A stretch of DNA of 31,091 nucleotides. Source: a virus. The notes below the pieces were generated by a model. That model was not told the origin of the DNA. It made no database searches and worked only from the letters and a program-made list of their open reading frames with translations. The translations under genes were made by a program, and so were the position numbers. Of the stretch, positions 21,435 to 28,187 are shown piece by piece. The stretch spans positions 1 to 31,091 of the IMG/VR virus record IMGVR_UViG_3300037840_000121. The stretch is one strand, 5' to 3'. Position 1 is the stretch's first letter; every line of letters starts with the position of its first letter.

Positions 21435-22913
21435 CTACTTCTCCCATCTCTGGCTCGCGTGCCCATCGCTGGTGATCGGCACCCGGAACAGCAACTCCCC
21501 CGTCTCCTGGTCCGTCATGCACTCGTCAAACGCCACCGCCAGCGCCTGATCTACCGCCTCCACCGCATCTTCCTCCACCTCCACCATCTCCGCATCATGG
21601 ATGGTAAGCAACGGCCAGCACCAAACTCCATGCCCGCCATCCCACAATTGTTCCAACAATTGGGCTGACTTCCCCATGACCAACTTCAGTTGACCTGCTG
21701 CCGTTGCCGTGATTGGTAGATTCTGCGCTTGTCTAAGCCCCGCTCCTCTAATCCAGCTATGGCACGACCGGATCTCCGGCACCAGCCTCACCCTCCCGAA
21801 TAGATCCCACACCATCCCGTAGCGCCTAGCTCTGTACCATTGCAACTCGAAGTAAGGTCGCAACTCTTCATAAGCATCTAGCAAGTCTTCAATAAATTTG
21901 TCACACCACTCTTCCGTCAACCATTGAGGCACCGGGATGGCACTCGCTCCATAATCCATGACGAGTTGCATGTACAAGCCACGCCCGGTTGAACCGTTTT
22001 GCAGTGAAAAAATACACCGCTTAGCTGCCATCCGATGCTTTACCTTGTCAGGCTTAACGTCGTCATCCAGGGCAAATACTTTGCGCGAGGTCTGGTCATG
22101 AATGTCACCATTCGCCAGATAGGTTGAGATCATCGCTTGACAGTTTGCAAGATGGGCAAGACAGCGTAATTCAATCTGACTCAAGTCCCGCACCAGCAAC
22201 CTATGACCGGGCGGGGCACAGAAGCAAGCCTGCAACGCCTGTCCATCGTCGGTGCGGGTAGGGATGTTGCCAAGGTTAGGATTCTTGTGGTTAATGCGTC
22301 CCGTCTCCGCCCGCGTGGTCCCCATCTCCCCATGCACGCGCCACTGGTCACTGGCATGTTGCAACTCGCACACCGGACAGCATCCCCCTCTCGGGTGGAA
22401 TCGAGCGAGCACCGGCAGGCGGCTGGTGTATGTAGTCACCAGCTTCTTCAGCTCCCTATGCCTTAGCACCTTGGGTATGACCGGGTGTTCCAGCTTCTTC
22501 AACAACTCCAACTGCCTCTTCCCTGTGCTGATCCTCTTGCCCCCTGCCGTGGTCTTCAGCTTCAGCCCCGCCTCATCCGCTTTACCTTTGAGCCCTAGCA
22601 AATCAAACAGCAGCTTCCCAATCTGCTCGGCGCTAGAGGCGTTAAAGGAGACAGAGCCAGTAACCTCCTCTATGCTGCCGGCCTGGTCGGAGAACTGGTT
22701 CAGGGCTTCAGGCGGGATGTAGCTGGCGATGTCCTTCTCCAACTCGGCGATCTCTAGCCCGAAGCGGTGGCTGAGTTCGTGGCAGGCTTCCCGGTCGATG
22801 CCGATGCCCAGGCGCTGGCAACGGCGGATAAGCGGAATCGCTAAAAGATCCAGCTTCCTGACATTCTCAAGGTCGGGATGCCCAGGAATCTCTATCCCAC
22901 CAAACAAACTCAC
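21435..22913 (-). CDS. Family A DNA polymerase (polymerase domain only)
   Basis: The start is GTG 22913, in a GTGA overlap with the gene before (492 residues); the longer frame to 22988 would overlap that gene by 79 nt. It contains the Pol I fingers/palm motifs: TTRAETGRINHKNPNLGNIP, motif A VRDLSQIELR (Asp near 243), motif B HRMAAKRCIFSLQNGSTGRG and motif C TIHDAEMVEV (Asp440). No 3'-5' exonuclease domain is present; a separate gene provides one. Three positions differ from E. coli Pol I when aligned by eye: Tyr to Leu after the motif A Asp, Tyr766 to Asn in the O-helix, and Ala in place of Glu after motif C Asp. A CCPVC insert may bind zinc. It replicates phage DNA. Confidence 0.9.
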   Translation of the reverse strand: MSLFGGIEIPGHPDLENVRKLDLLAIPLIRRCQRLGIGIDREACHELSHRFGLEIAELEKDIASYIPPEALNQFSDQAGSIEEVTGSVSFNASSAEQIGKLLFDLLGLKGKADEAGLKLKTTAGGKRISTGKRQLELLKKLEHPVIPKVLRHRELKKLVTTYTSRLPVLARFHPRGGCCPVCELQHASDQWRVHGEMGTTRAETGRINHKNPNLGNIPTRTDDGQALQACFCAPPGHRLLVRDLSQIELRCLAHLANCQAMISTYLANGDIHDQTSRKVFALDDDVKPDKVKHRMAAKRCIFSLQNGSTGRGLYMQLVMDYGASAIPVPQWLTEEWCDKFIEDLLDAYEELRPYFELQWYRARRYGMVWDLFGRVRLVPEIRSCHSWIRGAGLRQAQNLPITATAAGQLKLVMGKSAQLLEQLWDGGHGVWCWPLLTIHDAEMVEVEEDAVEAVDQALAVAFDECMTDQETGELLFRVPITSDGHASQRWEK

Positions 22914-23086
22914 GGGTTTGTCCTGCCGCTGAAAAGCTCCCGCCCGTATTGCTGGATCTCCCAAACCTCCGTGTCCTCGGTCAGCCACGTGATCTCCGCC
23001 AGCGAGTAAGCGTGCGGGTAACCGGGCCGCATCTTAGCCAGGAACAAGTTGATGAGGCGGGAGTAGACGGTGGAGGCGTGGTTCAT
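22910..23086 (-). CDS. Small protein coupled to the polymerase
   Basis: The 58-residue product (MNHASTVYSRLINLFL...) begins in an ATGA overlap with the gene before and ends in a GTGA overlap with the polymerase, which decides the start. It combines helices (STVYSRLINLFLAKM) with an acidic segment (TWLTEDTEVWEIQQYG). No family is recognised. Strict coupling suggests a polymerase-associated or regulatory role. Confidence 0.6.
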   Translation of the reverse strand: MNHASTVYSRLINLFLAKMRPGYPHAYSLAEITWLTEDTEVWEIQQYGRELFSGRTNP

Positions 23087-24124: not shown

Positions 24125-24303
24125 CCTTTCACTTCTTCTTGCTTCAACCTCTTGTAAATTCCGTGCTTCCTGGCTACTTCGCTAACATACCGTGCATCAA
24201 CTCCTTCGTGTTTGGCGATGCTGGTATAGGTTAAATCGCCAGCGCGGATCAGATCCAGGATACGGGTGATACGGTTGATAGCCGCCAGCTTTTTACTAGT
24301 CAT
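24121..24303 (-). CDS. Small helix-turn-helix protein
   Basis: The 60-residue protein contains ITRILDLIRAGDLTYTSIAK followed by HEGVDARYVSEVARKHGIYK: a three-helix DNA-binding unit with the recognition helix around residues 37-50, like homeodomain-like HTH domains of resolvases and sigma region 4. Both ends overlap neighbours through ATGA, which fixes start and stop. It may regulate this operon or guide a replication protein to DNA. Confidence 0.65.
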   Translation of the reverse strand: MTSKKLAAINRITRILDLIRAGDLTYTSIAKHEGVDARYVSEVARKHGIYKRLKQEEVKG

Positions 24304-25793
24304 TGGTCCCAGTCTGAAGGATCTACCGACCAGCGGCCATCCGCCCGCCCTGCCGCCAGCGCCTCAGCCACTTGCCCAGTAACATCGGCGTCCCCACACC
24401 CGTACTGAACCGCTTGCTCCAGGTCACAATTCCCAATCCCCAGTATCGGCACCGGACCCAACTCACTTTCCAGATACTCGAACTCCCACCCCTCAATCTT
24501 CTTGCCCCGCAAGCCCTCGATCCGCATCCGTGCTAGCGCCTTCCACGGGTCGTACGGCTCATCCTCGTCACTGGTCTTAGCCGTGTACACCAGCACGTGC
24601 TTCAGTATCCCCTCCGCCGCTGACGGCACATGCGTAACCCGGACGGATTGCATGTTGCCCGAGCCACAGTGCTTGCACACGTCTTGTTTTCCCCTCCGCC
24701 CACAATCTAAGCAGGTCCGCATCTTCATCTCCTGCCGCTGGGTATCCTGCAAATTCGTCTGGCATAGGGTTAGCGCGTCCTCCATCCAATCCACTATTTT
24801 AGCCACCGATGCCGGCCAGACCGTATCCGCCCACGACTGCATCGTCACGCCAAAGAGCCGGTACGCCAGTGCCTTGAGACCTTGCGGGAGGTTGCACTGG
24901 TGGTAAGCCTGTTGCAAGGTGTCCTGGAAGCTAGGCGCGTGTAGCCCCATCCGCTCCATCATGTCCAGATCCTGCCCCGCGTTGTGGAGGATAACCTCCG
25001 GCTCCCAGTGCGCGCGGTAGGACTGCAACATCTCCAGACAGGCAGTGTTATCCGCTAGGATCATGCGCCCGGTCCCCGGCCAAAGCGAGAATTGCACTGA
25101 CCATGCTTTAGGTCCGTGACGCTCGGTGTCTACCGCTATCCACTTCCGTTGATAAAGGGCGGTATACCGGCGCAGGTCGTCAATGTCTTCCACCAGTGCG
25201 TAGTCCTTAGTTGCCCACGGCACGTCGTCATCGTCCGGTGCTCTCCACTCCCCCCTTACCCACTCCCCCAAGTGCCGGAAGTCATCCATCAGGTGCGTCA
25301 TCTGGCCGGTGTCCCGCATCCCCAATGCCGGTTCGTATGAGGGCCACACCCACCCGGACCAGCGTCCGTCCATTAGGCTAACGTGCTGCGGCCGCCCGTG
25401 GTGCATGTCCAGACGCAACCTGCTATCGGACAGGCGGCAAGTGGCCCCGCCCATGAGTACCACGACTTCCGGCTTGACCTTGTCCAGGAGTTGAGGCAAG
25501 TGGTGTCGGGCGCAAGCCTGCACACGGGCGTCCGGCGCTGTCTTATCACTGTCATCCCAGCAAAGGGTGGCATTTCCTATCACTACGTCGTCCCTACTGA
25601 TACGGGCCAACGGCAGGTAGGTTTGCTCCAGCTCCTCGCCAGCGCGTCCCGAGTAAGGTGTGTGCGTGCGGGATTCGGTAAGCCCCGGCCCAGCCCCCAG
25701 GAAGAGATACCGGCAGGGCGTAGGTCCTACGGCCTGTATCTGGCTGCAAGGGTGGCCGGAGATGGCGGGGCAGGCAGAGCATCTAGTCATCAT
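24300..25793 (-). CDS. UDG-like domain fused to a DEDD 3'-5' exonuclease
   Basis: With ATG 25793 the protein has 497 residues. Residues 1-165 follow family 4 uracil-DNA glycosylase: Cys5, Cys8, Cys78 and Cys94 spaced as in the iron-sulfur site, GAGPGLTESRTHTPYSGRAG, IGNATLC and PSYEPALGM. The usual GEAPG Glu is Ala and the HP motif reads EP, so glycosylase activity is doubtful. From about 215 comes an exonuclease: WIAVDTERHG (D-x-E), ILHNAGQDLDMM, FQDTLQQAYH and YGCGDADVT, completing a DEDDy set. A CxxC-x8-CxxC zinc ribbon (about 358-375) is inserted. It should proofread for the separate polymerase. The start overlaps the end of a tiny hydrophobic gene. A TATCAT box sits 7 nt upstream. AVGPT is encoded by a TAGGWCCTA palindrome. 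Confidence 0.8.
   Translation of the reverse strand: MMTRCSACPAISGHPCSQIQAVGPTPCRYLFLGAGPGLTESRTHTPYSGRAGEELEQTYLPLARISRDDVVIGNATLCWDDSDKTAPDARVQACARHHLPQLLDKVKPEVVVLMGGATCRLSDSRLRLDMHHGRPQHVSLMDGRWSGWVWPSYEPALGMRDTGQMTHLMDDFRHLGEWVRGEWRAPDDDDVPWATKDYALVEDIDDLRRYTALYQRKWIAVDTERHGPKAWSVQFSLWPGTGRMILADNTACLEMLQSYRAHWEPEVILHNAGQDLDMMERMGLHAPSFQDTLQQAYHQCNLPQGLKALAYRLFGVTMQSWADTVWPASVAKIVDWMEDALTLCQTNLQDTQRQEMKMRTCLDCGRRGKQDVCKHCGSGNMQSVRVTHVPSAAEGILKHVLVYTAKTSDEDEPYDPWKALARMRIEGLRGKKIEGWEFEYLESELGPVPILGIGNCDLEQAVQYGCGDADVTGQVAEALAAGRADGRWSVDPSDWDQ
25720..25730. repeat. TAGGWCCTA palindrome, copy 6
   Basis: GTAGGTCCTAC, preceded by GGGC and followed by GGCC, inside the UDG-exonuclease gene; on the minus strand it encodes VGPT. 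Confidence 0.7.
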
Positions 25794-26426: not shown

Positions 26427-27245
26427 TTACGCCCCTTCCTCTGCTATCGCCCTGACCACTGCCTTGGCCGTCACCTTCCCAATCCCATCTATGCTCGCCC
26501 ACTCCTTCTCCGTCGCCAGCGCCATCGCCCGCACACTCCCAAAATGCGCCGCCACCTTCTCCGCCCGCCTGTCTATGCCAGGGAACTGCATCGCCACTCG
26601 CCACGCCGTCGTCGGATCGGCTTGCAACACCTTCCCCGTCCGGCCCCTAGCCCCGGCCGCAAACGTGGTGTCATGCCCGTGCTCCCGCGCCCACCCTGAC
26701 CCGTGTCCCTTCTTCGGCACCCCGTTTGCATACACCTGGTCATGGCTGTTGTGTTGATGCCAATCCTTATCCGTGAACCAGTGATACAGGCTAACGTACT
26801 GGGCCGCCGTCTCCCGCTCATTACTTGTTCTTCGGACCACTAGCCCTCCTCTAAGCTCCAGCGTGGTCAGGTAAGAGAGTAGCTGCCGGTAGCTGATCGC
26901 CGCCTTCCCTGCCTGGTGGCTGTAGAACGGACGCCAGTCCCTACCTCTTAGCTCCTCGATCTCTCCCCCGGCCCCCGGCCGCCAGACACCCTCCGCGAAA
27001 AGCAGGCAGTAGTCGTAGGATTGCCACATGCCTCGCAACTGGTGGCCGGACAGACGCCTGTCCTTCATGCTGTTCACCAGATCCGACAGCTTCTTGCGCT
27101 CGCATCCGACCAGACACTCCCCCTGCTCGCCGTTGCCTGTGAAGCAGCAATCCCCGTACTCCAGCCGCTGCACGCTCACCTCGACCCCTAGCTGGGCCAC
27201 CAGCTCGGCGATCCCGCCATGTTCCCGGTCGTCCACGATTAGCAT
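26427..27245 (-). CDS. ERCC4/XPF-type structure-specific nuclease
   Basis: The 272-residue protein has the ERCC4 nuclease signature: VDDREH (residues 4-9), EYGDCCF (29-35) and CERKKLSDLVNSMKDRRL (48-65), corresponding to the GD...ERKxxxD active site. The C-terminal part (about 205-270) carries two helix-hairpin-helix-like elements (MQFPGIDRRAEKVAAHFG, IDGIGKVTAKAVVRAI), as in XPF/Mus81 proteins that cut branched DNA. A role in processing recombination or replication intermediates is likely. The start follows the CTAGGACCTAG palindrome (27251-27261) by 5 nt, with only weak SD-like bases from it. Confidence 0.85.
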   Translation of the reverse strand: MLIVDDREHGGIAELVAQLGVEVSVQRLEYGDCCFTGNGEQGECLVGCERKKLSDLVNSMKDRRLSGHQLRGMWQSYDYCLLFAEGVWRPGAGGEIEELRGRDWRPFYSHQAGKAAISYRQLLSYLTTLELRGGLVVRRTSNERETAAQYVSLYHWFTDKDWHQHNSHDQVYANGVPKKGHGSGWAREHGHDTTFAAGARGRTGKVLQADPTTAWRVAMQFPGIDRRAEKVAAHFGSVRAMALATEKEWASIDGIGKVTAKAVVRAIAEEGA

Positions 27246-27250
27246 TTTGG

Positions 27251-27261
27251 CTAGGACCTAG
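27251..27261. repeat. TAGGWCCTA palindrome, copy 7
   Basis: CTAGGACCTAG between the Sak4-like ATPase and ERCC4-like nuclease genes. It contains the ATPase stop codon (27258-27260) and ends 5 nt before the nuclease ATG. Confidence 0.7.
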
Positions 27262-28187
27262 GCCCAGAAATCCGGGTCACTCTCCGGGTACACCTGCATC
27301 GCCAGATTCTGGAACGTGATCTCCTCATCTGCCAGCAACTCCAGCCCGATGATACTCGCGTTCGCCTGACAATCCTTGGTCTTCAGCACGTAGCGGCCGG
27401 CCCCAAACTCCTGATCGGTGACAATCATCTCGCACGCGACACTGGTGTAGTGCCCGATCTTGCTGAACTTCCCATCCGGCTGCGTCTTGTTGGTCGGCTT
27501 GCCATCCTTCCACACTTCTTTCGAGTGGTGGGTGAGCACCAGATTCTTGGTAGACATGTTGTTCAGCCACTCGCGTATTTCTTTTATCATGTCCTCGCGT
27601 GGGGCAAACCCAAACTCCTTCGGGTCAATAACCCCGGTGATCCCGTAGTTGGCATAGCTCACGTCGTCAACAAAAGCGCCGAAGGTGTCCACGCCAATGG
27701 TCTTGATCCGGTCATCCTCCAGCATCCTGTACCCTGTCTCTTTCGTGCGATTGACCGCCCATCTGAAATAGTGGCGTTGGCAACAGGTTGGGGGTGGGCT
27801 CGTGAGCGTGATCGTCTTGGCAATCTTCTGCATCTCATCCTGGATTGCACCTGCTGTCCAGTTCTTGTGGACCGCGTCCCCCAGCACGATGCAGGTTTGG
27901 GGGAGACTGGCAAGCAGCATCGGGTTAGCGGTACGGTTGAGGGACACGTCCGGCATGACGACTGTTCGCCCGAACTCGGCAGCGGTCTTAATCACAGTCT
28001 GACGCGCCTTGTTCTCTGTCGCCAGCAACCCGACCCCCGGCGCGGTCCCCAGCAGGCGTGACTTGCCCGTGCCTGGGGCTCCGTACACGGAGATAATCAA
28101 GGGCTCCTGGTAGTCAGCCACCGCCTCCACTAACTGGATCGGGCGCGTCGTCTGGTTGCTGGTGACTGGTATGTTGGTTGTCTTCAT
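27258..28187 (-). CDS. Sak4-like RecA-fold ATPase
   Basis: The 309-residue protein contains Walker A GAPGTGKS (36-43), Walker B with Asp167 in IKTIGVDTFGAF, and a LVLTHHSKE segment near 217-224, as in phage Sak4/AAA_24 single-strand annealing ATPases. An unusual insert (about 125-160, with CC at 135-136) separates the two Walker motifs. It likely drives annealing or strand exchange in phage recombination together with the nearby nucleases. The stop TAG lies in the palindrome at 27251-27261. GGAAGG lies upstream of the ATG. Confidence 0.8.
   Translation of the reverse strand: MKTTNIPVTSNQTTRPIQLVEAVADYQEPLIISVYGAPGTGKSRLLGTAPGVGLLATENKARQTVIKTAAEFGRTVVMPDVSLNRTANPMLLASLPQTCIVLGDAVHKNWTAGAIQDEMQKIAKTITLTSPPPTCCQRHYFRWAVNRTKETGYRMLEDDRIKTIGVDTFGAFVDDVSYANYGITGVIDPKEFGFAPREDMIKEIREWLNNMSTKNLVLTHHSKEVWKDGKPTNKTQPDGKFSKIGHYTSVACEMIVTDQEFGAGRYVLKTKDCQANASIIGLELLADEEITFQNLAMQVYPESDPDFWA

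What the first reader, a model, noticed from the sequence alone, without database searches (positions are those of the whole stretch)
24300..25793. Inactive-looking UDG domain fused to a proofreading exonuclease
Four Cys are spaced as in family 4 iron-sulfur UDGs, and the GRAG and N-x3-C motifs are present, but the GEAPG Glu is Ala (GAGPG) and the HP motif is EP. The domain is followed by a complete DEDDy exonuclease. A domain that may bind uracil without cutting, tied to a proofreading nuclease, could sense template uracil ahead of the polymerase, as archaeal family B polymerases do by other means, or protect uracil-containing phage DNA.
Basis: partly seen in the sequence, partly recalled or inferred. 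Interest (0 to 1): 0.65.

Follow-up and report, generated by a model that had tools for sequence, protein, structure and literature searches.

The report
Disabled uracil-glycosylase on a proofreading subunit
A bacterial virus carries its DNA-copying enzyme in two pieces, and the proofreading piece starts with a DNA-repair domain whose cutting residues were replaced long ago while the fold was kept, so a repair enzyme appears to have been turned into a non-cutting part of a copying machine.

Summary
The gene at 24300-25793 (minus strand, 497 aa) is a family-4-like uracil-DNA glycosylase (UDG) domain followed by a complete DEDDy exonuclease. AlphaFold plus Foldseek confirm the UDG fold, and all four Fe-S cysteines are present.

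New findings. (1) It is the proofreading half of a split Pol I; the polymerase half is a separate gene at 21435-22913. (2) Relative to Thermus UDGa, the three chemistry residues are replaced (E41 to A34, N89 to D83, H155 to E154) while the uracil-contact residues remain (E40, Y47, N74). (3) Six phages share the split. Four keep E, N and H; only the window and L011 lost them, both identically. (4) At otherwise invariant sites the UDG domain changed far more often than exonuclease plus polymerase on that branch (odds ratio 19, p = 4e-8), yet window and L011 remain 59% identical there. This is remodelling, not decay. (5) UDG-exo-PolA fusions are already known, but their UDG sites changed at least six times, and T5 polymerase's N-terminal extension looks like an eroded UDG.

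Best reading: a non-cleaving DNA-engaging module of a two-subunit replicase. A uracil sensor is possible but unproven. Nothing supports protection of uracil-containing phage DNA.

The parts
24300..25793 (-). UDG-like domain plus DEDDy exonuclease, 497 aa (proofreading half of a split Pol I)
25260..25793 (-). UDG-fold domain, residues 1-178
   Evidence: Pfam UDG 3e-14; model block pLDDT mostly above 80 over residues 21-180 and Foldseek to 1ui0 TM 0.78 of target, 4zbx E 2.7e-11
25683..25697 (-). motif 1, GAGPG (A34 in place of E41 of Tth UDGa)
   Evidence: alignments
25572..25574 (-). N74 (N80 of Tth UDGa, contacts uracil N3/O4), retained
   Evidence: role from PMC5387724
25545..25547 (-). D83 (N89 of Tth UDGa, positions water), substituted
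   Evidence: role from PMC5387724
25332..25334 (-). E154 (H155 of Tth UDGa, leaving-group stabiliser), substituted: YEP for FHP
   Evidence: role from PMC5387724
25770..25781 (-). Predicted Fe-S ligands C5 and C8
25512..25562 (-). Predicted Fe-S ligands C78 and C94
24303..25148 (-). DEDDy 3'-5' exonuclease domain, residues 216-497 (D222, E224, D275, Y464, D468)
24666..24713 (-). Cys4 zinc-ribbon-like insert inside the exonuclease (CLDC...CKHC); seen only in window, L011 and L108 among the UDG-exo sequences compared
21435..22913 (-). Separate family A polymerase domain (GTG start aligned with relatives; frame open to 22988)
   Evidence: Pfam DNA_pol_A 5.5e-66; start; 61-64% identical to L011
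23353..23613 (-). Small Cys-containing ORF between the two halves; homologue follows the UDG-exo gene in L108 (43% over 54 aa) and a similar frame lies in the L011 gap
26427..27245 (-). ERCC4/XPF-like nuclease with HhH, conserved upstream neighbour
27258..28187 (-). AAA/Sak4-like ATPase, conserved upstream neighbour

Best explanation
The gene encodes the proofreading subunit of a two-piece phage family A replicase. Its N-terminal domain descends from an intact family-4-type UDG. Its three chemistry residues were replaced on the branch leading to the window and L011, and the domain was then kept under constraint. It most likely works as a non-cleaving module that engages DNA near the fork, holding or orienting template or primer DNA for the exonuclease and helping the separate polymerase stay on, much as the poxvirus UDG D4 is part of a polymerase processivity factor. 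Shown: fold (predicted), residue losses, polarity, conservation, split architecture. Inferred: loss of activity, DNA engagement, and assembly with the polymerase.
For: Fold. All of E41, N89 and H155 replaced in window and L011 but kept in L108, L107, L109 and L110. In Thermus UDGa, H155S lowers k2 by more than three orders of magnitude and E41 substitutions are strongly impaired (PMC5387724). At sites invariant in L108, L107 and L109, window and L011 share 15 changes of 49 in UDG against 4 of 174 in exo plus pol, p = 4e-8 (7e-6 without four sites that match Thermus UDG). UDG internal branch 0.65 against 0.08 in the polymerase tree. Afterwards the UDG is more conserved than the exonuclease between window and L011, 59% against 52.5%. 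Pocket states of fused relatives change at least six times on the PolA tree. T5 polymerase carries a UDG-like N-terminus without the catalytic motifs. The UDG D4 is part of the poxvirus polymerase processivity factor (PMC11142717).
Against: No direct evidence of DNA binding, activity loss or contact with the polymerase. Uracil-contact residues E40, Y47 and N74 are kept, which a pure holding role would not need. Other UDG families tolerate changes at motif 1 or at the motif 2 His singly (established knowledge). Four of the 15 changed sites match Thermus UDG, so part of the signal could be a domain exchange within the clade. The split clade has only six members.
Confidence: 0.47

Rival explanations
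1. Uracil sensor: the pocket still accepts a flipped uracil, cannot cut it, and stalls the replicase or switches it to proofreading.
For: Exactly the three chemistry residues changed while the three uracil-recognition residues stayed (E47=E40, F54=Y47, N80=N74); F54Y largely keeps activity and H155S keeps near-normal Km in Thermus UDGa (PMC5387724; alignment). The poxvirus polymerase stalls at template uracil (PMC11142717).
Against: E41Q showed no detectable binding to U-DNA. A Glu facing uracil O2 may repel it. In other fused phages the recognition residues are lost too (Serbin group N to P and F to G; SPO1 N to S), so reading uracil is not a general function of the domain.
Confidence: 0.3
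2. Rewired active glycosylase: the carboxylate moved from motif 1 to motif 2 (E154) and D83 serves as base, giving an active enzyme for uracil or another modified base.
For: Changes cluster in the pocket and are conserved; other UDG families work without the motif 1 Glu or without the motif 2 His (established knowledge).
Against: No family is known to me that lacks all three; H155 makes the largest contribution in family 4; no nucleotide-modification genes found nearby.
Confidence: 0.16
3. Decaying relic with no function.
For: Loss of catalytic residues; eroded UDG domains occur repeatedly in other phage polymerases.
Against: Window and L011 share 59% identity in the domain, above the exonuclease; all four cysteines kept in both.
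Confidence: 0.05
4. Protection of uracil-containing phage DNA.
For: Only that no dUTPase or thymidylate synthase was found, which a uracil-DNA phage would also lack.
Against: No gene for raising dUTP or inhibiting host UDG recognised; UDG domains with intact residues in L108 and L107 sit in the same split arrangement; the domain sits on a proofreading enzyme.
Confidence: 0.02

Closest known systems
UDG-exo-PolA single-chain phage polymerases (SPO1; Lupandier jumbo phages such as PaBG, PMC7412058; Thermus phage phiLo, PDB 9qhs)
   Same: Same order of UDG, 3'-5' exonuclease and family A polymerase domains
   Different: Single chain there, two genes here; phiLo keeps E, F, N and H; SPO1 keeps E and H but has lost the uracil-contact Asn and the cysteines; none seen shows the A/D/E set
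Family 4 UDG (UDGa), e.g. Thermus thermophilus 1ui0
   Same: Fold, four Fe-S cysteines, E47, aromatic 54, N80, R161
   Different: Motif 1 Glu, motif 3 Asn and motif 2 His all replaced; fused to an exonuclease
Poxvirus D4 (UDG subunit of the E9-A20-D4 polymerase holoenzyme)
   Same: UDG fold used as a polymerase accessory
   Different: D4 is an active UDG of another family, tethered by A20 to a family B polymerase
T5 DNA polymerase N-terminal extension
   Same: Eroded UDG-like domain before a DEDDy exonuclease
   Different: Single chain; catalytic motifs and cysteines gone
UdgX
   Same: Close structural hit
   Different: No KRRIH loop, no GEQPG, no motif 2 His
Archaeal family B polymerase uracil pocket
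   Same: Proposed outcome (uracil sensing during replication)
   Different: Unrelated fold; no evidence here of sensing

Membership tests
Family 4 UDG (UDGa) | UDG alpha/beta fold | tested here: met
   Foldseek of the predicted model to 1ui0 TM 0.78 of target, prob 1.00
Family 4 UDG (UDGa) | Four Cys for a 4Fe-4S cluster | tested here: met
   C5, C8, C78, C94 aligned; cluster itself not tested
Family 4 UDG (UDGa) | Motif 1 GE(A/G)PG | tested here: not met
   GAGPG
Family 4 UDG (UDGa) | Motif 2 HP | tested here: not met
   YEP, E154
Family 4 UDG (UDGa) | Uracil excision activity | not testable with these tools
   needs an assay
UdgX | KRRIH loop and GEQPG | tested here: not met
   loop is WDDSDKTAP, motif 1 GAGPG
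DEDDy 3'-5' exonuclease of Pol I | DxE, D, YxxxD | tested here: met
   D222, E224, D275, Y464, D468
UDG-exo-PolA phage polymerases | All three domains in one chain | tested here: not met
   two genes in window, L011, L107, L108, L109 and L110; no intron family hit in window or L011
UDG-exo-PolA phage polymerases | Homologous UDG, exo and polymerase domains | tested here: met

The most novel reading that the evidence does not exclude
A glycosylase silenced under selection and rewired as a template-uracil sensor acting directly on the proofreading subunit of a two-piece replicase: a bacterial-virus counterpart, by an unrelated fold, of archaeal uracil read-ahead.
Probability: 0.27. Interest if true: 0.75.

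Novelty: new variant of a known kind. Interest (0 to 1): 0.56.

Why it matters
UDG domains on phage family A polymerases tend to be read as repair enzymes. The data here suggest that their cutting chemistry has been dropped repeatedly while the fold stayed on the proofreading side of the replicase, in one lineage by a sharp switch with close relatives that keep the residues. That gives a matched pair (window or L011 against L108 or L107) to test directly what a UDG fold does for a polymerase when it does not cut. It also gives a possible identity to the N-terminal extension of T5 DNA polymerase, a laboratory model enzyme.

Tried and rejected
Intron or trans-splicing as cause of the split: no Rfam hit in the window, L011 or L049, and coding is conserved up to the stop of the exonuclease gene and from the start of the polymerase gene, so rejected for this clade. 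L049 is also split, but inside the exonuclease, so not the same event. UdgX-like covalent trapping: no R-loop or His, rejected. Sequencing error: rejected, same substitutions in an independent contig. Bacterial host or prophage relatives: a genome-contig scan found none, so the host is unknown. dN/dS between window and L011 is near saturation (dS 2.6-3.1) and was not used. Gene neighbourhoods: thymidylate synthase and dCMP deaminase genes are commoner next to altered than intact UDG fusions, but the altered set is phylogenetically clustered and the pattern does not apply to the window. Literature: no open-access paper found on this split form or on loss of UDG catalysis in phage polymerases; a classic UDG superfamily paper and the T5 polymerase paper (Andraos 2004, known only through citations) could not be read, so prior description cannot be excluded.

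Full report
What is there. The window is a whole IMG/VR contig of 31,091 bases with no end repeats, a tailed phage with head and tail genes on the plus strand and replication genes on the minus strand. The gene at 24300-25793 on the minus strand encodes 497 residues. Pfam assigns residues 23-164 to the UDG superfamily (E 3e-14) and 201-318 to the Pol I 3'-5' exonuclease (E 1.4e-8). NCBIfam's type-4 UDG model matches at E 4e-15, far below its membership cutoff. An AlphaFold model made with 23 relatives gives a confident UDG domain (block pLDDT mostly 80-97 over residues 21-180) and a poorer exonuclease. Foldseek returns family 4 UDGs and UdgX first (1ui0: TM 0.78 of target; 4zbx: E 2.7e-11) and, among polymerases, phiLo polymerase 9qhs.

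The polymerase is next door. The gene at 21435-22988 is a family A polymerase domain without exonuclease (Pfam E 5.5e-66). Its likely start is the GTG at 22913, which aligns with the ATG start of the L011 homologue. So the UDG-exo protein is the proofreading half of a split Pol I. A scan with the polymerase found L011 (contig 3300004633_000352; L010 carries the same sequence), 64% identical in the best segment, with the same split and a UDG-exo protein 49.5% identical. Later scans added L107, L108, L109 and L110, all split. The coding sequence is conserved to the stop of the exonuclease gene and from the start of the polymerase gene, and no intron family is found in the window or L011.

The pocket. 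Mapping to Thermus UDGa with the mutational data of PMC5387724: E41 to A34, N89 to D83 and H155 to E154 are the three chemistry positions, all replaced. E47 (thymine exclusion) is E40, F54 (stacking) is Y47, N80 (uracil N3/O4) is N74, all kept or conservative; the Arg after motif 2 (R160) is kept too. In that study F54Y largely kept activity, H155S lowered k2 more than 1000-fold with Km little changed, and E41Q lost three orders of magnitude in k2/Km and detectable U-DNA binding. So strong loss of excision is expected, while retention of uracil binding cannot be predicted either way.

When it happened. L108, L107, L109 and L110 keep E, N and H at the three positions; only the window and L011 have A, D and E. 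UDG, exonuclease and polymerase trees agree that L108 groups with window and L011 against L107, L109 and L110, and L108 shares the Cys4 insert. At sites invariant in L108, L107 and L109, window and L011 share a new residue at 15 of 49 UDG sites, 1 of 56 exonuclease sites and 3 of 118 polymerase sites (Fisher p = 4e-8 for UDG against the rest). Seven of the 15 lie in or beside the pocket motifs (34, 35, 46, 80, 83, 154, 160). The UDG branch to the pair is 0.65 changes per site against 0.08 for the polymerase. After the switch the domain is again constrained: 59% identity between window and L011, against 52.5% in the exonuclease. Caveat: four changed sites (35, 46, 51, 160) equal the Thermus residue, so a domain exchange with an unsampled relative could contribute; without them p = 7e-6.

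The wider family. UDG-exo-PolA chains are known: PaBG and relatives (PMC7412058), phiLo (9qhs) and SPO1, whose polymerase gave old family 4 UDG annotations their name. From phage records and IMG/VR about 40 such chains were collected. Their pocket states range from intact (E F N H) through GQNPG forms to D G P H (Serbin, PMBT14, Lebethron and P744), E M S H (SPO1) and forms with little recognisable. On a polymerase tree this needs at least six changes between intact and altered, with direction not established for every one. T5-like N-termini match the second half of the UDG profile (hhalign probability 94%, score 47 against at most 17 in 60 column-shuffled controls), and a T5 model finds 1ui1 with TM 0.53 of target, prob 1.00, E 2e-3. 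The T5 claim rests on a moderate model and a 51-column match.

Interpretation. Recurrent change of the chemistry with retention of the fold on the proofreading side of family A replicases points to a job other than base excision, most simply engaging DNA. UDG use as a polymerase accessory has a precedent in poxvirus D4 (PMC11142717). In the window lineage the kept recognition residues leave a sensor reading open. No dUTPase, thymidylate synthase, dCMP deaminase or other uracil-related gene was recognised in the window or L011 gene sets, so protection of uracil-DNA is not supported.

Limits. Nothing here measures activity, binding or complex formation. The window is probably an incomplete genome. 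Six sequences define the switch. The host is unknown. The literature search covers open-access papers only.

Noticed in passing
L066:3001-3390 (T5-like DNA polymerase residues 1-130); also L016, L059, L061: The N-terminal extension of T5 DNA polymerase looks like an eroded UDG domain (SPAQ in place of HP): hhalign P 1.2e-7, Foldseek to 1ui1 TM 0.53 of target.
   Followed up: partly
L015:3800-4200 (Gordonia phage Biskit): Gordonia phage polymerase also begins with a UDG-like remnant (APAA in place of HP).
   Followed up: partly
L011:8450-10852 and L107:10571-12403: The family A polymerases of two relatives carry intein-like inserts at two different sites (L011 about 313 aa with a weak LAGLIDADG match, after KNPN; L107 in the O-helix region); the window has none.
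   Followed up: partly
window 21435-22988 (P0002 residues 319-337): In window and L011 the polymerase O-helix has NG where nearly all compared phage polymerases have YG (the template-stacking Tyr), an unusual change at a fidelity residue.
   Followed up: no
L026, L028, L032, L034-L037: A clade of UDG-exo-PolA phages has GQNPG in motif 1, close to the GQDP of family 1 UDGs.
   Followed up: no
L002, L005, L007, L008: Phages of the Serbin/PMBT14 type combine a remodelled UDG pocket (D, G, P, H) with dCMP deaminase, thymidylate synthase or pyrimidine hydroxymethylase and in some dUTPase genes next to the polymerase, suggesting modified thymine DNA.
   Followed up: partly
L049:5839-8223: Another UDG-exo-Pol gene is split inside the exonuclease domain by a short ORF, a different kind of split with GEAPA and HP kept.
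   Followed up: partly
L017:12067-12432: The start of the SP-15 polymerase also matches the UDG profile (E 1e-9), although SP-15 has a separate UDG gene.
   Followed up: no
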